Origin: Hydrogenophaga pseudoflava NBRC 102511
Lineage (GTDB): Bacteria > Pseudomonadota > Gammaproteobacteria > Burkholderiales > Burkholderiaceae_C
Reading direction: 5' to 3'
DNA: 64,000 nucleotides
Assembly (NCBI RefSeq): GCF_001592285.1
Contig: NZ_BCWQ01000018.1
Location: 1 to 64,000, forward strand
Shown: positions 6,138 to 54,285 of the stretch, in pieces
Layout of the letters: the number at the start of each line of letters is the position of its first letter
Numbering within the stretch: the first letter of the stretch is position 1
Notes under the pieces: generated by a model
Told to the model about the DNA's origin: nothing
The model's input: only the letters and a program-made list of their open reading frames with translations
The model's database searches: none
Position numbers and translations under genes: made by a program

Positions 6138-7100
6138 ATGTGTGTCGTGTGCGGATGCAGTGACAACAGCCCGGCCCATGCCCGGCATGTGCAACAGAAC
6201 GCGGGCAGCGAACCCGGCGTGATCACGGTCAACCCGGCCAACGGCGACTTGCACTTCGGCGCCGGTGCGGCCCGCGTGTCGGTGCCGGGAATGAGCCAGG
6301 AACGGGCCATCAAGCTGGAGACCGATATCCTGGGCGCCAACAACCGTGTGGCCCAGCAGAACCGGGCGCATTTTGAATCGCACGGTGTGACCGCGCTCAA
6401 CTTCGTCTCCAGCCCCGGTTCGGGCAAGACCACGCTGCTGTGCGCCACCATCGAGGCGCTCAAGGCGCGCAAGCCCGGCCTGCACGTGGCCGTGATCGAG
6501 GGCGACCAGCAGACCAGCTTCGACGCCGACCGCATCCGCGCCACCGGCGCGCCCGCGATCCAGGTCAACACCGGCAAGGGCTGCCACCTCGACGCGCCCA
6601 TGGTGGCCGAGGCGTTTGCGCAGCTGCACACACACCACCACTCGCACGACCACACCCACGGTCACGATCACGGGCATCACCACCACCACCACGGCGACGA
6701 CCACAGCCTGCTGTTCATCGAGAACGTGGGCAACCTGGTCTGCCCCGCCGTGTGGGACCTGGGCGAGGCCGCCAAGGTGGCCATCCTCTCGGTGACCGAG
6801 GGCGAGGACAAGCCGCTGAAGTACCCCGACATGTTCGCGGCTTCGCAGCTCATGATCCTGAACAAGACCGACCTGCTGCCGCACGTGAAGTTCGACGTGA
6901 CCCGCTGCATCGACCTGGCCCGGCGCGTGAACCCGGCGATTGAAGTCATCCAGCTGTCCGCCACCACCGGCGAAGGCATGGACGCCTGGCTGCACTGGCT
7001 GCAACACATGGTCCCCCACGCTCCGCCGCTGCGCGGGTCGCTGCCCCCCGAGGGGGCGCGTTTCGCCTTGGGGCGGCCCGGCGGCGAAACCGGCGCCTGA
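6138..7100 (+). CDS. hypB: Hydrogenase nickel incorporation GTPase HypB
   Basis: This 320-residue SIMIBI-class GTPase powers nickel delivery. It has an N-terminal CVVCGC high-affinity nickel motif (residues 2-7), a P-loop SSPGSGKTT (91-99), a metal-site GKGCHLDA (147-154), IENVGN Walker-B region (194-199) and NKTD (242-245). Two features are unusual. A His-rich loop with 16 His in 26 residues (164-189) lies inside the G domain instead of near the N-terminus. The last 28 residues (about 293-320) come from a GC-rich repeat (7013-7090) that also occurs in hypX and hoxF. An AAGGAG precedes the start at 6125-6130. Confidence 0.95.
7013..7090 (+). repeat. GC-rich structured repeat, family 1 copy A, inside hypB
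   Basis: A 45-base block (7013-7057) is identical to the block at 14711-14755 and to the reverse complement of 11954-11998. It ends in a GCCCCCCGAGGGGGC hairpin. It is followed by an 8-base arm GTTTCGCC (7060-7067), a conserved middle centred on TTGGGGCGGCCCG, and the complementary arm GGCGAAAC (7083-7090). The repeat is read in frame as the HypB C-terminus. Confidence 0.9.
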
Positions 7101-11437: not shown

Positions 11438-13242
11438 ATGTCCCTGCGCATCCTGCTGCTCTGCCACAGCTTCAACAGCCTCAGCCAGCGCCTGTACGCC
11501 GAGCTGCGCGCGCGCGGCCACCAGCTCAGTGTCGAGCTGGACATCGCCGACAGCGTGACCGAAGAGGCGGTGGCGATGGCCCGGCCCGACCTGGTGCTGG
11601 CGCCGTTCCTCAAGCGCCGCATCCCGGCCTCGGTCTGGCAGCGCGTGCCCTGTTTCGTGGTGCACCCCGGCCCGCCCGGCGACCAGGGGCCGAGCGCGCT
11701 GGACTGGGCGGTGCGCGACCGCCAGCCGCACTGGGGCGTGACCGTGCTGCAGGCCGACGGTGAGTTCGACGCCGGCCCGGTCTGGGCCCACGCGTCGTTC
11801 GACATGCGTCCGGCCACCAAGGGCAGCCTGTACCGGCGCGAGGTCACGCGCGCCGCGCTGCAGGCCACGCTGGCCGCGGTGGCGCGCTTCGCGGGCGGCG
11901 AGCGTGAGGCGCCCGCAGAACGATTCGCCGCCGGGCCGCCCCAAGGCGAATCAGCCCCCTCGGGGGGCAGCGACCCGCGCAGCGGCGGAGCGTGGGGGCG
12001 TGGCTGGAAGCCCTTGATGAAGCAAGCCGACCGAGCGGTGGATTGGTCGCGCGACGACACCGCGACCGTGCTGGCGAAGCTGCGCTGCGCCGATGGCCAG
12101 CCCGGTGTGCTGGACGCGCTCTGGGGCCAGTCCTGTTACCTGGGCGATGCCCACGAGGCCAGCGCCGCGACCCTGGCCGAATTCGCCGACCGCGCGCCGG
12201 GCGAACTGCTGGCGGTGCGCGACGGTGCGCTGCTGCGGCGCACGGTGGACGGTGGCGTGTGGATCGGCCAGGCCCGGCTCGCCGACCCGCCCGGCACCGC
12301 GCCGGGCCAGGGCCATTTCAAACAGGCGGCGGCCGAGCTGTTCGCCACCGAAGCGGCGGCGCTGCCGCAGCGCCCCGCGCCGCTGGTGCGGCCCGACGAC
12401 GAATGGGCCGAGCTGCGCTACACCGAACACGGCCCCGAGGGCGCGCGCGTGGGCTGCCTGAGCTTCGACTTCTGCAACGGCGCCATGGGCACCGGGCGCT
12501 GCGAGCGCCTGCGCGCCGCCCTGCTGGCAGTGCGCGAGCGGCCCACCCAGGTGCTGCTGCTCATGGGCGGCGAGGGCTTCTTCAGCAACGGCATCGACCT
12601 CAACCGCATCGAGGCCGCGGCGCACCGCCCCCGCGACAGCGCGGCCGACGAATCCTGGCGCAACATCCAGGCCATGGACGACGTGGCACTGGCCGTGCTG
12701 GAGACCACCGACCGCCTGACGGTGAGCGTGATGCGCGGCAACGCGGGCGCGGGTGGCGTGTTCCTCGCACTCGCGGCCGACCAGGTCTGGGCGCACGAGG
12801 GCGTGGTGCTCAACCCGCACTACAAGAACATGGGCAACCTCTACGGCTCGGAGTACTGGACCTACCTGCTGCCGCGCCGCCTGGGCGAGGCCGGCGCGCG
12901 CGAGCTGATGGCCGGGCGGCTGCCTCTGCTGGCCGCCGAAGCGCAGCGCATCGGCCTGATCGACATGTGTGACCCGGGGCCACGCGAAGGGTTGGAGGCC
13001 CGCGTGCTTGAACGCGCGCTGGCGCTGGCCGCCTCCTACAATCTGCCTGAGCAGTTGGCGGACAAGCAGGCCCGGCGCGCCGCCGACGAAGCACACTGTC
13101 CGCTGGCCCGATACCGCGAACAGGAACTGGCGCGCATGCACCGCAACTTCTACGGCTTCGACCCGAGCTACCACGTGGCCCGGCACCACTTCGTGCACAA
13201 GCTGCCGCACGCCTGGACACCGCGCCACCTCGCCACCCACCG

Positions 13243-14703: not shown

Positions 14704-16607
14704 AACAGGGCCCCCACGCTCCGCCGCTGCGCGGGTCGCTGCCCCCCGAGGGGGCTGATCCGGCTTGGGGCGGCCCGGCGCCGGATCGCGCGTTGTCCTC
14801 ACACGTCGTCGCAGCCGACGCGGTGCTGGCGCGCTGGCACCACGACCCGCACGCGCTGGTGCAGGTGCTGCGCGAGACCCAGGCGCAGACCCACTGGCTG
14901 CCGCGCGAACTGCTGGCCCACATCGGCCGCGCGCTGGGCCTGACCCTGGCCCATGTCGAAGGCGTGGCCAGCTTCTACCGCTTCTTCCACCTGCGGCCTG
15001 TGGGCCGGGTGCGCGTGCTGTTCTCGGACAACATCACCGACCGCATGGCGGGCAGCGAGGCGCTGATGGCGAGGCTGTGCGAGCGCCTGGGCGTGAAGCC
15101 TGGAGCGGTCGATGCGCAGGGCCGCTTCAGCGTGGACCGCTGCTCCTGCACCGGCCTGTGCGACCAGGGGCCGGCCCTGCTGGTCAACCACCACCAGGTG
15201 GTGACGCGGCTGGACGCCGCGCGCGTGGACCAGCTGGCCGAGCGGCTGCTGGCCGGTGTGCCGCCCGAGGACTGGCCGGCCGACTGGTTCGCGGTGGAGG
15301 ACCACATCCGGCGCGCCGACGTGCTGCTGCAGGGCCTGCCCGCCGATGCCCCGTCGCTGCCCGCCGTGCTCGCCCGCACACCCGCCGAACTGCTGGCCGA
15401 GGTCGAACGTTCGGGCCTGCGTGGCCGCGGTGGCGCCGGTTTCCCGACCGCGCGCAAGTGGCGCGCCTGTGCCGAGGCCGATGCGCCTGACGGCCAGCGC
15501 TGCGTGGTCTGCAACGCCGACGAGGGCGAGCCCGGCACCTTCAAGGACCGCGTGCTGCTGAGCCGCCACGCCGACGAACTGTTCGACGGCATGACGCTGG
15601 CCGCGCGCGCCATCGGCGCGCAGACCGGTCTGGTCTACCTGCGCGGCGAGTACCGCTTCCTGCTGCCGCAGCTCGAAGCCGTGCTGCAGCGCCGCCGTGC
15701 GAACGGCCTGCTGGGGCGCAATGCCGGTGGTGTGGCCGGCTTTGATTTCGACATCGCCATCCACCTCGGCGCGGGCGCCTACGTCTGTGGCGAAGAGTCG
15801 GCGCTGATCGAGTCGCTGGAAGGCCAACGTGGCACGCCGCGCATCCGCCCGCCCTTCCCGGTGCAGCGCGGCTACCTCGGCCGCCCGACCGTGGTCAACA
15901 ACGTCGAGACCCTGGTGGCGGTGGCCCACATCGCGCGCCGCGGCGGCGCCTGGTGGGCCGGCCTCGGCACGCCCGAATCCACCGGCACCAAGATCCATTC
16001 GGTCTCGGGCGACTGCGAGCGCCCCGGCCTCTACGAATACCCGCTGGGCACGCCGCTGGCGCAGATCCTGGCCGACTGCGGCGCGCGGAATGCGCAGGCG
16101 GTTCAGGTGGGCGGTCCCTCGGGCAGTTGCGTGCCGGCCAGCGGTTTCCATCGCGCCATCGCCTTCGAAGACCTGCCCAGCGCCGGCGCCCTGATGGTGT
16201 TCGACCAGACCCGCGACCTGTTCGAGGTCGCGCGCCACTTCGCGCGCTTCTTTGCCCACGAAAGCTGCGGCCTGTGCACGCCGTGTCGCGTCGGCACCGA
16301 GCTGGTCGTGCGCCGGCTGGACAAGCTGGCCCACGAACGCGGGGCAGGGCGCGGCTCGGCCTTCGACATCGCCCGCCTGCAAGAGCTGGACGCGCTGCTG
16401 CACAGCGGCACACACTGCGGCCTGGGCGTCTCGGCCTGCAACCCGCTGCGCGACACCCTGGCCCACTTCGGTCAGGCCTACGCCCAGCGCAGCACGGCGG
16501 CGCAGTTCCAGCCCGGGATCGACCTGGATGCCGAGCTGTCGTCGGCGCGCCGGGCGACCGGACGGCAAGACCGGGGTGCACACCTGAACACGGAGCACGG
16601 CGCATGA
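14700..16607 (+). CDS. hoxF: NAD-reducing hydrogenase diaphorase subunit HoxF
   Basis: This 635-residue protein oxidises or reduces NAD(H) at FMN in the cytoplasmic hydrogenase. A NuoE-like N-terminal part (about 40-190) is fused to a NuoF-like part. Motifs are RGRGGAGFPTARKW (about 241, NADH), GAGAYVCGEESALIESLEG (about 357, FMN) and ESCGLCTPCRVG (about 520, [4Fe-4S]). In the NuoE part only one Cys pair remains (CTGLC); the other two ligands are replaced, as partly in Cupriavidus HoxF. The first residues after the start, about 4-30, are encoded by a GC-rich repeat (14711-14787), and family similarity begins near residue 40. The real start could therefore be a TTG or GTG just after the repeat, near 14793-14805. 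Confidence 0.93.
14711..14787 (+). repeat. GC-rich structured repeat, family 1 copy C, at the 5' end of hoxF
   Basis: The 45-base block 14711-14755 is identical to 7013-7057. The variable arms are GATCCGGC (14757-14764) and GCCGGATC (14780-14787), perfectly complementary. The repeat begins eleven bases after the annotated hoxF ATG. It either adds about 26 residues to HoxF or is 5' untranslated sequence separating hoxA from the true hoxF start. Confidence 0.9.
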
Positions 16608-50774: not shown

Positions 50775-51544
50775 AACACGCCCGCATCGCCTGGGCCGGC
50801 GCGGTCCACGACGCCGTCGAAGCGGACGGCCAGCTTGAACTGCTCACGCCCGCCTTCAACGGCCGCCGTGTCGGCTTCGATGAGGTGGTCTGGCTGCCGC
50901 CGCTCGCGCCCATCCACCGCCCGCGCACCGTGCTCGCGCTCGGCCTGAACTACGCCGACCACGCGAAAGAACTCGCCTTCAAGGCACCCGAGGAGCCGCT
51001 GGCCTTCGTCAAGGGTGAGGCCTCGCTCATCGGCCACCGCGCCTTCACCGTGCGACCCGACGGCGTGCAGTTCATGCACTACGAGTGCGAGCTGGCTGTG
51101 GTGATCGGCAAACCTGCGAAACGCGTGAAGAAGTCAGAAGCGCTGCAGTACGTGGCCGGCTACACGGTTGCCAACGACTACGCGATCCGCGACTACCTGG
51201 AAAACTGGTACCGACCCAACCTCAGGGTCAAGAACCGCGACACCTGCACGCCCCTGGGCCCCTGGCTGGTGGACGCCGCCGACGTGCCCGATCCCCAGGC
51301 CCTGGCGTTGCGCACGGTGGTCAACGGCAAGGTCACGCAGCAGGGCCACACGAAGGACATGATCTTCGACGTCGCCACGCTCATCGATTACTTCAGTGCC
51401 TTCATGACCCTGATGCCCGGCGACCTCATCCTCACCGGCACGCCCGACGGCGTCGTCGACTGCCAGCCCGGCGACGTGGTCGTCACCGAGATCGACGGCA
51501 TCGGCTCCCTCACGAACACCATCACTTCCGAAAGCAAGGCATGA
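50771..51544 (+). CDS. hpaG2: HpaG C-terminal-type decarboxylase/isomerase subunit
   Basis: This 257-residue FAH-family enzyme is equivalent to the C-terminal half of HpaG. Metal ligands and signature are visible in HYECELAVVIGKPAKRVKK (Glu pair, about 101) and GYTVANDYAIRDYLENWYRPNLRVKN (Asp), then LMPGDLILTGTPDGV near the C-terminus. It overlaps hpaE as ATGA. Confidence 0.92.
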   Translation: MKHARIAWAGAVHDAVEADGQLELLTPAFNGRRVGFDEVVWLPPLAPIHRPRTVLALGLNYADHAKELAFKAPEEPLAFVKGEASLIGHRAFTVRPDGVQFMHYECELAVVIGKPAKRVKKSEALQYVAGYTVANDYAIRDYLENWYRPNLRVKNRDTCTPLGPWLVDAADVPDPQALALRTVVNGKVTQQGHTKDMIFDVATLIDYFSAFMTLMPGDLILTGTPDGVVDCQPGDVVVTEIDGIGSLTNTITSESKA

Positions 51545-53016
51545 CGCAACGCATCCACCACCTCATCAACGGCAAGACCGTTGAAGGCACCGACTACTTT
51601 GAAACGATCAACCCGGCCACGCAGGGCGTGCTGGCCGAGGTCGCATCGGGCACCGAGGCCGAGGTCAACGCCGCGGTTCAGGCCGCCAAGGACGCCTTCC
51701 CGGCCTGGGCCGGCCTCCCCGCCACCGAGCGCGCCAGGAAGATCCGCGCCCTGGGTGACCTGATCGCCAAACACGTGCCCGAGATCGCGAGGACCGAGAC
51801 CGAAGACACCGGGCAGGTGATCGCGCAGACCGGCAAGCAGCTGATCCCGCGCGCCTCGGACAACTTCTACTACTTCGCCGAGATGTGCACCCGCGTCGAC
51901 GGCCACACCTACCCCACGCCCACGCACCTGAACTACACGCTGTTCCACCCGGTGGGCGTCTGCGCGCTCATCAGCCCGTGGAACGTGCCCTTCATGACCG
52001 CCACCTGGAAGGTCGCACCCTGCCTGGCCTTCGGCAACACGGCGGTGCTCAAGATGAGCGAGCTCAGCCCGCTGACCGCCGCGCGACTGGGCGAGCTGGC
52101 GCTGGAGGCCGGCATCCCGGCCGGCGTGCTCAACGTCGTGCACGGTTTCGGCAAGGAAGCGGGCGAGCCGCTGTGCGCCCACCCGGATGTGCGCGCCATC
52201 AGCTTCACCGGGTCCACCGCCACCGGCAACCGCATCGTCAAGACCGCGGGCCTGAAGAAGTTCAGCATGGAACTGGGCGGCAAGAGCCCGTTTGTCATCT
52301 TCGACGACGCCGACCTGGACCGCGCGCTCGACGCCGCGATCTTCATGATCTTCAGCAACAACGGCGAGCGCTGCACGGCGGGTTCGCGCATCCTGGTGCA
52401 GCAGAGCATCTACGCCGACTTCGTCGCGAAGTTCACCGAGCGCGCCAAGCGCATCGTGGTGGGCGACCCGCTGGATGAGAAGACCACTATCGGCCCGATG
52501 ATCAGCAAGGCGCACCTGGCCAAGGTGCGCAGTTACATCGAGCTGGGTCCGAAGGAGGGCGCGACGATGCTGTGCGGCGGGCTGGACCGTCCTTCGTATG
52601 CCGCCGAGCTGCCGTCGCATGTGGCGGGCGGCAACTACGTCTGGCCGACGGTGTTCGCCGACGTGGACAACCGCATGAAGATTGCGCAGGACGAGATCTT
52701 CGGCCCCGTGGCCTGCCTGATTCCGTTCAAGGACGAGGCGGACGCGATCCGCATCGCCAACGACATCCAGTACGGGCTGTCGAGCTATGTCTGGACGGAG
52801 AACATCGGCAAGGCGCACCGTGTGGCGGCCTCGATCGAGGCGGGCATGTGTTTCGTGAACTCGCAGAACGTGCGGGATCTGCGGCAGCCGTTTGGTGGCA
52901 CCAAGGCGTCGGGCACCGGACGCGAGGGCGGGACCTGGAGTTACGAGGTGTTCCTGGAGCCCAAGAACGTCGCGGTGTCCATGGGGTCGCATCACATTCC
53001 TCATTGGGGTGTTTGA
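51541..53016 (+). CDS. hpaE: 5-carboxymethyl-2-hydroxymuconate semialdehyde dehydrogenase
   Basis: This 491-residue NAD-dependent aldehyde dehydrogenase oxidises the ring-cleavage semialdehyde. It has ISPWNVPFMTATWKVAPCLAFGNTAV (about 140), FTGSTATGN, catalytic Glu in MELGGKSPFVIFDDADLDRALD (about 243), nucleophile Cys in NNGERCTAGSRILV (about 281) and EIFGPVACLIPF (about 385). It is separated from hpaD by 342 bases containing two structured repeats. Confidence 0.95.
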   Translation: MTQRIHHLINGKTVEGTDYFETINPATQGVLAEVASGTEAEVNAAVQAAKDAFPAWAGLPATERARKIRALGDLIAKHVPEIARTETEDTGQVIAQTGKQLIPRASDNFYYFAEMCTRVDGHTYPTPTHLNYTLFHPVGVCALISPWNVPFMTATWKVAPCLAFGNTAVLKMSELSPLTAARLGELALEAGIPAGVLNVVHGFGKEAGEPLCAHPDVRAISFTGSTATGNRIVKTAGLKKFSMELGGKSPFVIFDDADLDRALDAAIFMIFSNNGERCTAGSRILVQQSIYADFVAKFTERAKRIVVGDPLDEKTTIGPMISKAHLAKVRSYIELGPKEGATMLCGGLDRPSYAAELPSHVAGGNYVWPTVFADVDNRMKIAQDEIFGPVACLIPFKDEADAIRIANDIQYGLSSYVWTENIGKAHRVAASIEAGMCFVNSQNVRDLRQPFGGTKASGTGREGGTWSYEVFLEPKNVAVSMGSHHIPHWGV

Positions 53017-53054
53017 TTTGCGCTCCTCTGCTGTTTCGCTCGGCTACCTGGGCG

Positions 53055-53160
53055 GGCTTGGAGGACCGGGGTACCCGGTTCCGCTCATGTCCCCCGAAAC
53101 GGGCTTTGCCCGTTTCTCCTCCTTTACTTCGCTGCACCGGGTACCCCGATCCTCCAAGCC
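53055..53160 (+). repeat. Structured repeat, family 3 copy A
   Basis: The outer arms of 25 bases (53055-53079 and 53136-53160) are complementary at 24 positions. Inside are the 17-mer TCCGCTCATGTCCCCCG (53080-53096), a hairpin AAACGGGC-TTT-GCCCGTTT (53097-53115) and the 20-mer CTCCTCCTTTACTTCGCTGC (53116-53135). Both core blocks recur in copy B in the opposite orientation. It lies between hpaE and hpaD. Confidence 0.92.
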
Positions 53161-53208
53161 GGAAGTGATGCTGGCACTCCACAGTTCGAGCACCGATGCG
53201 CAGCGAGA
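53161..53208. other. Spacer between the two family 3 repeats
   Basis: These are 48 bases of ordinary sequence between the oppositely oriented repeats. No gene, promoter or terminator is evident. Together with the flanking 38 bases before copy A and 48 bases after copy B, it completes the non-coding gap 53017-53358. The only recognisable signal there is the AGGAGA at 53345-53350 ahead of hpaD. Confidence 0.6.
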
Positions 53209-53310
53209 GAAGGCGAGGTGGGTGGTGTGCCGCAGCGAAGTAAAGGAGGAGGGCTGCGCGCAGCGCAGACCGGGGGACATGAGCGGAGGTACACCACCCA
53301 CCTCGCCTTC
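53209..53310 (-). repeat. Structured repeat, family 3 copy B
   Basis: This is an inverted copy of the element at 53055. The outer arms of 23 bases (53209-53231 and 53288-53310) are complementary at 22 positions but unrelated in sequence to the arms of copy A. On the minus strand the core reads TCCGCTCATGTCCCCCG, then a different hairpin CTGCGC-TGC-GCGCAG, then CTCCTCCTTTACTTCGCTGC. Both core blocks are identical to those of copy A. Confidence 0.92.
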
Positions 53311-53358
53311 CACCACAAACGTCAGACAAGACAACGCACAAAACAGGAGACAAGCCAA

Positions 53359-54285
53359 ATGGGCAAAGTAGCACTGGTCGGCAAGATCACCCACGTCCCC
53401 TCGATGTACCTCAGCGAACTCGACGGCCCCCGCAAAGGCACGCGCCAGGACGCCATCGACGGCCACAAAGAAATCGCGCGCCGCTGCAAAGAACTGGAGG
53501 TAGACACCATCGTCGTCTTCGACACCCACTGGCTCGTCAACGCCACCTACCACCTCAACTGCGCGCCCCACTGGCAAGGCACCTACACCAGCAACGAGCT
53601 GCCCCACTTCATCAGCAACATGGGTTACGCCATCCCCGGCAACCCCGAGCTGGGCCAGTTGCTCGCCAAAGTCGCGAACGAACACGGCGTCGAAACCCTC
53701 GCCCATCACGCCACCACGCTGCAGCCCGAATACGGCACCCTCGTGCCCATGCGCTACATGAACGCCGACCAGCACTTCAAGGCGGTCTCGGTCTCGGCCC
53801 TGTGCACCTCGCACTACCTCAACGACAGCGCGCGCCTGGGCTGGGCCATGCGCAAGGCCGTCGAAGACCACTACGACGGCACCGTCGCCTTCCTCGCCAG
53901 CGGCTCGCTCAGCCACCGCTTTGCGCAGAACGGCCTGGCGCCCGAATACGCGTTCAAGGTCTGGAGCCCTTTCCTGGAGACGCTGGACCACCGCGTGGTG
54001 GAGATGTGGACCAACGGCGAGTGGAAGACCTTCTGCGAGATGCTGCCGGAGTACGCCAGCAAGGGCCATGGCGAAGGCTTCATGCACGACACGGCCATGA
54101 TGCTGGGCGTGCTGGGCTGGAGCGAATACACCGGCCAGGCCGAGATCGTCACGCCCTACTTCGGCGCCTCGGGCACCGGCCAGATCAACGCGCTGTTCCC
54201 GGTGCTGCCGGTCAGCGGCGCCGCCGTTCCTCAGCCCGTGGCCTCGCGGGCCGACGGCTATTCCAGCATTGCCACGCGCCTGTAA
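53359..54285 (+). CDS. hpaD: 3,4-dihydroxyphenylacetate 2,3-dioxygenase
   Basis: This 308-residue class III (LigB-type) extradiol dioxygenase opens the ring of homoprotocatechuate. Candidate Fe ligands are His in GKITHVPSM (residue 12) and VFDTHWLVNATYH (about 57), with SGSLSHRFAQ (about 180) contributing the acid-base His. A strong AGGAGA at 53345-53350 sets the ATG. It begins the second part of the hpa operon after the structured repeats. Confidence 0.94.
   Translation: MGKVALVGKITHVPSMYLSELDGPRKGTRQDAIDGHKEIARRCKELEVDTIVVFDTHWLVNATYHLNCAPHWQGTYTSNELPHFISNMGYAIPGNPELGQLLAKVANEHGVETLAHHATTLQPEYGTLVPMRYMNADQHFKAVSVSALCTSHYLNDSARLGWAMRKAVEDHYDGTVAFLASGSLSHRFAQNGLAPEYAFKVWSPFLETLDHRVVEMWTNGEWKTFCEMLPEYASKGHGEGFMHDTAMMLGVLGWSEYTGQAEIVTPYFGASGTGQINALFPVLPVSGAAVPQPVASRADGYSSIATRL

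What the first reader, a model, noticed from the sequence alone, without database searches (positions are those of the whole stretch)
53017..53358. Two large hairpin repeats with identical cores but different arms, in opposite orientation inside the hpa operon
Seen directly: copy A (53055-53160) and copy B (53209-53310, inverted) share an identical 17-mer and an identical 20-mer. The inner hairpins differ in sequence yet both fold, and the 23-25 base outer arms differ completely yet pair within each copy. Conserved core with self-complementary variable arms is not the pattern of an ordinary REP sequence or insertion sequence. Family 1 in the hydrogenase genes shows the same logic, so there may be a general mechanism that renews the arms, for example hairpin-templated synthesis or structure-dependent mobilisation.
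Basis: seen in the sequence. Interest (0 to 1): 0.8.

Follow-up and report, generated by a model that had tools for sequence, protein, structure and literature searches.

The report
Paired structured hairpins after bacterial genes
A roughly 260-base DNA unit made of two facing hairpins, whose small inner core changes little while its stems change freely but stay matched, sits just after many genes in beta-proteobacteria and some relatives; what it does is not yet known.

Summary
The two hairpins form one unit of a dispersed family: about 260 bp, two inverted hairpins; 16 hairpins found in this Hydrogenophaga genome, exact core in 64 of 399 family genomes. In 478 pooled hairpins (179 site groups, mostly found through their core) a purine-rich internal loop hardly varies, while outer and inner stems vary freely but stay paired (covariation 0.787 against 0.203 shuffled). 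Mismatches are mainly G.U and G.A on the purine strand, so one strand's fold is preserved, in both halves. Units lie about 32 nt after stop codons, rarely between divergent genes, and persist at orthologous sites (27 of 29 hpaD upstream regions). Between close relatives stems can differ wholesale; exchange between copies is inferred, no donor proven. Y1 (RAYT) transposase is missing from several carriers and beside none of 19 loci. In Luteimonas terricola the pair rides in a TIR-bearing unit. Best reading: a BIME-like bidirectional gene-end element whose purine hairpin docks an unknown factor; RNA or ssDNA undecided. Hairpin-templated renewal is neither shown nor excluded. New variant of a known kind.

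The parts
53055..53160 (-). Hairpin A (purine strand on -): outer stem 53055-53079 / 53136-53160, inner stem 53096-53104 / 53108-53116
   Evidence: fold; CM hit 53054-53160 -, 117.5 bits
53116..53127 (-). Hairpin A core, 5' side on purine strand: GTAAAGGAGGAG
   Evidence: exact-core match; counts in 478 hairpins
53086..53096 (-). Hairpin A core, 3' side on purine strand: CGGGGGACATG
   Evidence: exact-core match
53161..53208 (.). Spacer between the inner feet of the two hairpins (48 bp)
   Evidence: family median about 44 bp by a flank-alignment estimate
53209..53310 (+). Hairpin B (purine strand on +): outer stem 53209-53231 / 53288-53310, inner stem 53251-53259 / 53263-53271 with one mismatch
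   Evidence: fold; CM hit 53207-53313 +, 106.5 bits
53240..53251 (+). Hairpin B core, 5' side: GTAAAGGAGGAG
53271..53281 (+). Hairpin B core, 3' side: CGGGGGACATG
51085..53016 (+). ORF holding hpaE (aldehyde dehydrogenase type; the true start lies inside this ORF); 38 nt lie between its stop and hairpin A
53358..54285 (+). hpaD (ring-cleavage dioxygenase type); 47 nt lie between hairpin B and its start

Best explanation
The window holds one unit of a dispersed, BIME-like family of bidirectional two-hairpin elements. Shown: each half is an outer stem, a strongly conserved purine-rich internal loop, and an inner stem often capped by a C(GNA)G triloop; stems are free in sequence but kept paired; the purine strand is the one whose fold is preserved; the halves face each other at a nearly fixed distance; units sit just downstream of genes and stay at some sites for long times. 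Inferred: the unit marks or protects the 3' boundary of transcription units, the purine-strand hairpin presenting its internal loop to a conserved but unidentified binding partner, and the inverted pair makes it work for genes arriving from either side. Inferred, without a proven donor: stem variety comes from drift under a pairing-only constraint plus exchange of halves or inner stems between copies by recombination. Whether the working form is nascent RNA or single-stranded DNA is not decided.
For: Covariation: 92.5% of cells paired against 61.2% shuffled, score 0.787 against 0.203, slid versions at most 0.149, 42 sequences, structure taken mainly from the same alignment; RNAalifold 32 of 34 pairs with a compensatory change. 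Core: pairs 39/75, 42/72, 43/71, 45/70 at 99-100% in 478 hairpins, 179 site groups (most fetched by the core itself, so partly by construction); A41.G73 swapped to G.A in 20 hairpins of 17 groups, G40.G74 to A.U in 5 hairpins of 4 groups; in 175 pairs the less conserved half has 0, 1 or 2 core changes of 21 in 80, 55 and 31. Purine-strand fold: isolated inner-stem mismatches 54 purine G.U against 5 on the other strand, 75 against 3 for G.A, 281 distinct inner stems. Arrangement: 161 of 166 neighbours closer than 400 bp are '+-'; 141 of 163 '+-' gaps are 100-129 nt. Context: 146 element gaps are 100 tandem, 42 convergent, 4 divergent, against 98/26/54 in 178 gaps of the same loci (p 5.8e-12 for divergent, orthologues not merged); stop codon to foot about 32 nt at the median (n 112, foot taken 30 nt outside the core); a terminator-like hairpin plus T run in 8 of 105 such intervals. 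By site group: 43 convergent, 69 tandem, 6 divergent. In-place retention: 18 ortholog groups; of 29 hpaD upstream regions fetched by protein, 22 have both hairpins and 5 one. No functional bias of adjacent genes.
Against: If the element worked in the mRNA, the purine-sense half should be better kept in tandem sites. Ungrouped this looked strong (77 pairs, p 1.9e-4); grouped by site it fell to Wilcoxon p 0.025 (51 groups, 25 against 15) and, with a better finder and more loci, to p 0.09 (44 groups, 17 against 13, mean changes 0.33 and 0.70; the 9 groups with newly fetched loci go the other way, 0.44 and 0.22). Purine G.U bias is similar in sense (227:24) and antisense (180:28) halves. Single hairpins in tandem sites: 11 sense, 12 antisense groups, later 23 and 14. 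Some sites lack a hairpin or the unit (G237 none, G201 remnant by eye, G222, G236, G231 one), so it is dispensable. No partner protein, transcript or phenotype is known. Gene calls were home-made.
Confidence: 0.5

Rival explanations
1. A selfish mobile element whose ssDNA purine hairpins are recognised at both ends by a trans-acting recombinase, as in REPIN/RAYT or IS200/IS605 systems; pairing is kept for transposition, not for the host.
For: Inverted pair with fixed spacing; dispersed sites; strand-specific fold in both halves regardless of transcription; C(GNA)G cap in at least 300 of 479 hairpins, recalled as an unusually stable DNA mini-hairpin (one search shows only that papers use these terms).
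Against: Y1_Tnp not found in G096 (9 exact cores) nor in 4 of 7 other carriers searched, including Luteimonas terricola, and none of 19 Y1_Tnp loci (1.5 kb either side) holds the core. Outside Luteimonas no excess of terminal inverted repeats in 140 pairs. Long retention at orthologous sites. No exact-core match in viral contigs, no similar stretch in phage records. Other recombinase families were not searched.
Confidence: 0.25
2. Classical DDE-transposon MITE: hairpins are passengers or internal parts of TIR elements.
For: L. terricola: 152 candidate places, 40 scored; in 26 units read by eye the ends carry GGTTCWTCTCCCAACT inverted repeats in most, with 8-bp duplications of A/T tracts exact in L363 (AAGAAAAA) and L377 (ACGAAAAA).
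Against: Such ends show no excess elsewhere (140 pairs; shared words of 5 nt or more at the borders in 35 of 162 pairs against 42 shuffled, Luteimonas included). No ISL3 transposase in that genome, so the TIR family is unknown.
Confidence: 0.08
3. Hairpin-templated renewal of arms: one arm is copied from the other during replication or repair.
For: Among 202 hairpin comparisons with flanks at 90% identity or more, both arms are below 0.6 identity in 36, the inner stem in 61, the inner stem alone (arms above 0.85) in 7 (comparisons not independent, at least one, L025 with itself, an artefact). In G697 copies share core and tip while their 8-bp stems differ. No donor copy is proven. I raised this from 0.07 to 0.10 after one search removed my donor case.
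Against: Only 199 of 384 inner stems are perfect and mismatches are strand-biased. L114 and L332 have similar arms while the closer relative L322 differs, by eye. In G244 the left half at L295 carries the same inner stem as its partner half 1.3 kb away, while its G000 orthologue L113 has another, which fits exchange, though that stem is common in the genus.
Confidence: 0.1
4. Ribosome-binding mimic or tiny reading frame: AAAGGAGG, stem, AUG.
For: Purine strand reads GTAAAGGAGGAG-stem-CGGGGGACATG.
Against: The AUG is not kept: its second base changes with its partner (33/79: AT 424, GC 46) and its third becomes T in 34 (32/80: AG 434, AT 34), of 478.
Confidence: 0.03

Closest known systems
REP / BIME / REPIN elements (PMC3733652: outline, abstract and one passage; PMC3116915: search listing only)
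   Same: Extragenic palindromes, often in inverted pairs, between unidirectional and convergent genes and downstream of coding regions.
   Different: Here the constant part is an internal loop and the stems are free; hairpins are about 100 nt, not 20-40 bp; the GTAG/CGTC tag was not counted; Y1 transposase not associated; at most 13 exact cores per genome in the tables (16 hairpins here), far more in L. terricola.
BRE, Beta-proteobacterial repeat element of Bordetella (PMC3110155: passages and one section read)
   Same: Beta-proteobacterial repeat, usually intergenic, 75-91 bp, Comamonadaceae among hosts.
   Different: From memory and length, Family 1 of this window is the likelier BRE.
Burkholderiales-1 motif (PMC2864571: passages, table row seen)
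   Same: Candidate structured RNA of Burkholderiales, marked doubtful, no Rfam accession in the row.
   Different: Its alignment was not readable here; it could be the same thing.
MITEs
   Same: Non-coding, dispersed; in L. terricola the unit has TIRs and 8-bp duplications.
   Different: No excess of such ends elsewhere.

Membership tests
REP/REPIN (RAYT-mobilised) | inverted pairs of palindromes outside genes | tested here: met
   (13 of 179 site groups fall inside a called ORF)
REP/REPIN (RAYT-mobilised) | cognate Y1 transposase in the genome, flanked by the repeat | tested here: not met
   absent in 5 of 23 genomes searched, all five carriers; core in 0 of 19 Y1 loci
REP/REPIN (RAYT-mobilised) | GTAG or CGTC tag at the hairpin foot | not tested
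   feet differ between copies by eye; no count made
MITE of a DDE transposon | terminal inverted repeats and target duplications | tested here: not met
   no excess in 140 pairs (inverted repeats) and 162 pairs (border words); seen in L. terricola
Known Rfam RNA | match above gathering score | tested here: not met
   0 in the window; only microRNA families below threshold in 52950-53420
Intrinsic terminator | hairpin followed by a T run | tested here: not met
   no T run after either purine hairpin in the window, read directly; not counted over the family
Structured nucleic acid under selection | compensatory base changes beyond controls | tested here: met
BRE (Bordetella) | sequence identity to BRE | not testable with these tools
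   the section read gives no sequence
Burkholderiales-1 motif | match to its alignment | not testable with these tools
   no alignment in the passages seen

The most novel reading that the evidence does not exclude
An undescribed class of bidirectional gene-end element in which a nearly invariant purine internal loop, held between exchangeable stems, is a docking site (as RNA or as extruded ssDNA) for an ancient conserved partner shared by Burkholderiales, Rhodocyclales and Xanthomonadales; stems are swapped as modules between copies, so a genome carries a set of identically docked but individually coded hairpins.
Probability: 0.3. Interest if true: 0.8.

Novelty: new variant of a known kind. 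Interest (0 to 1): 0.62.

Why it matters
A motif whose stems are free but whose internal loop hardly changes between beta- and gamma-proteobacterial carriers argues for a specific binding partner. It sits at the 3' ends of ordinary genes (in this genome beside MurB, argininosuccinate synthase, sigma-70, tRNA synthetase and RecJ family genes), and few of the intervals before it hold a terminator-like hairpin (8 of 105), so it may bear on how such genes end their transcripts. Wholesale stem change around a constant core would be a natural system for studying recombination or repair inside palindromes.

Tried and rejected
RAYT link: Y1_Tnp in 15 of 16 genomes and 3 of 7, with or without exact cores, beside a core in 0 of 19 loci. 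TIR/TSD: no excess outside Luteimonas. ISL3 transposase in L. terricola: none. Ribosome-binding reading: contradicted. Aldehyde dehydrogenase upstream, suggested by three loci: 2 of 94 adjacent genes, rejected. mrr gene between two hairpins in G244: one case; L204 has attC-like sequences between hairpins by eye. mRNA-strand test: significant ungrouped, weaker grouped, not significant in the better run; one search used a finder that lost units and is disregarded. Donor claim for L472/L470: withdrawn, because one search shows L472 is the orthologue of L468 (92% over 4.6 kb) and L470 a paralogous region (83% over 3.6 kb), so the shared half is explained by descent. Literature by sequence letters: six papers with chance matches in unrelated work. 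A4 is a sham alignment of unrelated proteins, made only to scan 94 of 144 adjacent genes in one call. A1 uses 42 of 108 hairpins that passed a diversity filter. Of 44 genomes with HpaD only the 30 most similar loci were fetched. Rows dropped: Luteimonas loci L354-L383 and L136 from context and strand counts (L187 and L192 stayed in); loci below L050 or L021 as duplicates; hairpins with short flanks. Most copies were fetched by their exact core, so core conservation in pooled counts is partly by construction.

Full report
OBSERVATION. The window (G000:C18:1-64000) holds two facing hairpins between hpaE (stop at 53016) and hpaD (start at 53358). Copy A is 53055-53160 and copy B 53209-53310. Both fold far below shuffles as DNA or RNA, on either strand.

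FAMILY. A pattern for the exact core finds 12 copies in this genome and none with the reversed control. A covariance model built from 42 hairpins chosen to be diverse finds 16 at E 0.01, after scoring 150 of 4870 candidates. The exact core is present in 31 of 60 genomes of the genus, 30 of 200 and, in a wider draw, 64 of 399 genomes of the family, 37 of 141 genera. In a phylum draw with the covariance model 6 of 299 genomes matched, all of the own class, but that search scored only 13 candidates per genome and undercounts. Viral contigs: 0 exact cores. Phage records: no stretch similar to 53030-53330. Plasmids: 2 partial matches to that stretch, none to a G104 unit; one, on a Burkholderia anthina conjugative plasmid, lies between a 2-hydroxymuconic semialdehyde dehydrogenase and an alpha/beta hydrolase gene.

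ANATOMY. Among neighbouring hairpins closer than 400 bp, 161 of 166 are in '+-' order and 5 in '-+'; 141 of 163 '+-' gaps are 100-129 nt. Foot to foot the unit measures about 261 bp (5-95%: 230-292, 162 pairs). On the purine strand each hairpin is outer stem, internal loop 5' GUAAAGGAGGA / 5' GGGGGACA, inner stem. Loop positions are 94-100% conserved in 478 hairpins at 179 site groups; since most copies were fetched by an exact core this is partly by construction. A fairer measure is the less conserved half of each pair, which need not match the search pattern: of 175 pairs it has 0, 1 or 2 changes in 21 core positions in 80, 55 and 31 (the finder allowed up to 6). A41.G73 becomes G.A in 20 hairpins (17 groups) and G40.G74 becomes A.U in 5 (4 groups), which suggests that the loop itself is a paired, non-Watson-Crick structure; below it the pairs 30/82 (CG 361, TA 52) and 33/79 (AT 424, GC 46) covary. 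The centre of the inner hairpin on the purine strand is C(GNA)G in at least 300 of 479. That this is a very stable DNA mini-hairpin is recalled; one search shows only that papers use these terms.

SELECTION ON PAIRING, AND ON WHICH STRAND. Of the cells of the structure 92.5% pair, against 61.2% shuffled; covariation score 0.787 against 0.203, and at most 0.149 when slid. RNAalifold gives 32 of 34 pairs with a compensatory change. Mismatches are one-sided: isolated inner-stem mismatches are G.U on the purine strand 54 times and on the other 5 times, G.A 75 against 3 (281 distinct inner stems); outer arms 724 against 125 for G.U (not corrected for relatedness). The bias is similar whether the purine strand is sense to tandem genes (227:24), antisense (180:28) or in convergent sites (242:34). 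So the fold of the purine strand is preserved in both halves whatever the direction of the genes. Core changes are fewer in the sense half: p 1.9e-4 ungrouped, Wilcoxon 0.025 grouped by site, 0.09 in the larger run with a better finder (44 groups, 0.33 against 0.70), and reversed in the 9 groups with newly fetched loci. RNA or ssDNA remains open.

WHERE IT SITS. With home-made gene calls, 146 element-bearing gaps are 100 tandem, 42 convergent and 4 divergent, against 98, 26 and 54 in 178 other gaps of the same loci; the distance from stop codon to the nearest foot is about 32 nt at the median (n 112); 8 of 105 stop-to-element intervals hold a terminator-like hairpin with a T run. By site group in the larger set: 43 convergent, 69 tandem, 6 divergent, 13 inside a called ORF, 48 unplaced. 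In the flanks of L310, L319 and L328 terminator-like hairpins appear on both sides, by eye. Adjacent genes are ordinary: in this genome they match MurB, argininosuccinate synthase, sigma-70, a class I tRNA synthetase, LytTR, RecJ, LigB, Usp, ankyrin and aldehyde dehydrogenase families; among 94 scanned of 144 adjacent genes no family is hit by more than 4.

LONG RETENTION, BUT STEMS CHANGE WHOLESALE. Flank homology gives 18 ortholog groups. HpaD was found in 44 of 60 genus genomes; of the 30 most similar loci fetched, 29 show the upstream region, and 22 of these have both hairpins, 5 one, 2 none (G237 empty, G201 a remnant by eye; cores with up to 4 changes per side counted, in a 420-nt stretch; L291 shows its second hairpin further upstream). 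The site group also holds three loci from two other genera (L033, L034, L043). In 22 orthologues chosen for having both cores, majority identity is 0.97-1.00 in the core blocks, 0.74-0.79 in inner stems, 0.68-0.71 in outer arms, 0.69 in the spacer, 0.61 in the hpaD leader and 0.93 in the first 120 nt of hpaD. At a site between LytTR-regulator and RecJ-type genes, G000 and G225 share flanks at 93% and hairpin A almost exactly, while hairpin B differs throughout its arms and inner stem but not in its core. Among 202 hairpin comparisons with flanks at 90% or more, both arms are below 0.6 identity in 36 and the inner stem in 61, in 7 of them with arms above 0.85; these are not independent and at least one is an artefact. 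At L468 (G697) against its orthologue L472 (G568; 92% over 4.6 kb) the arms of one half are alike while the inner stem is of another type; the tip of the L468 stem, CACTCCCGTG, and its variant CGCTCCCGCG are carried by several other G697 copies, which hints at transfer, but no identical donor stem was found. In G697 six hairpins share the tip CGCTCCCGCG and five of them the exact core while their 8-bp stems differ and pair with at most one mismatch.

MOBILITY. Y1 transposases are present in Hydrogenophaga with or without exact cores, not found in G096 and in 4 of 7 other carriers, and none of 19 such loci holds a core. In L. terricola the pair is amplified (152 candidate places, 40 scored) inside a unit with terminal inverted repeats and 8-bp duplications of A/T tracts, often at terminators, by eye in the 26 units printed; no ISL3 transposase was found there. 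In 140 pairs elsewhere inverted repeats at the borders do not exceed shuffled controls. How the unit spreads in Burkholderiales is unknown.

READING. The best account is a BIME-like, bidirectional gene-end element whose purine-strand hairpin presents a conserved internal loop to an unknown partner, with stems free to drift and, I infer, to be exchanged between copies. It resembles REP/BIME elements in place and arrangement, but it is not a RAYT REP: the transposase link was tested and not met. The core letters were not found in relevant papers of the open library (six unrelated papers) and topic searches listed no description that I recognised; only listings were seen, apart from the papers named. 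Two candidates, BRE (PMC3110155, one section read) and Burkholderiales-1 (PMC2864571, table row seen), could not be compared by sequence, so an earlier sighting is possible.

WHAT THE CHECK CHANGED. On holding the first version against the calls I withdrew a claimed donor case, corrected gap lengths to neighbouring genes, the statement that G697 stems pair perfectly, and the account of the AUG, added the construction bias of the core counts, and raised the odds of hairpin-templated renewal from 0.07 to 0.10.

Noticed in passing
window 7010-7095, 11921-11999, 14708-14792: Family 1: constant core CTTGGGGCGGCCCGGC with different complementary arms of about 8 bp next to a second GC-rich hairpin, three copies; possibly the Bordetella BRE, from memory.
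   Followed up: partly
L295 4208-5609 (G244:C12): A gene with Mrr_N and Mrr_cat domains lies between two inverted hairpins with identical inner stems, 1.3 kb apart; hairpins with matching arms in G000 lie near contig ends (C1, C15).
   Followed up: partly
L204 4729-7337: Two inverted hairpins 2.5 kb apart enclose ORFs with attC-like sequences and repeats containing GGTCAGGTCTTGCCTTTT, by eye.
   Followed up: no
L354-L383 (Luteimonas terricola): High-copy unit with terminal inverted repeats and 8-bp duplications in A/T tracts, carrying the hairpin pair; transposase not identified.
   Followed up: partly
L386 / L118 (G000:C14:45010-45116): One hairpin is missing compared with orthologues (for example L300), leaving a foot sequence CCCGCGAGGT, by eye.
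   Followed up: no
L486 (Burkholderia anthina plasmid NZ_CP071828.1, 178062-178117): Element between 2-hydroxymuconic semialdehyde dehydrogenase and an alpha/beta hydrolase on a conjugative plasmid.
   Followed up: partly
L073-L075 (G009): Copies lie downstream of another repeat, a GCTATTGAAAAGATAGCTG-like hairpin, by eye.
   Followed up: no
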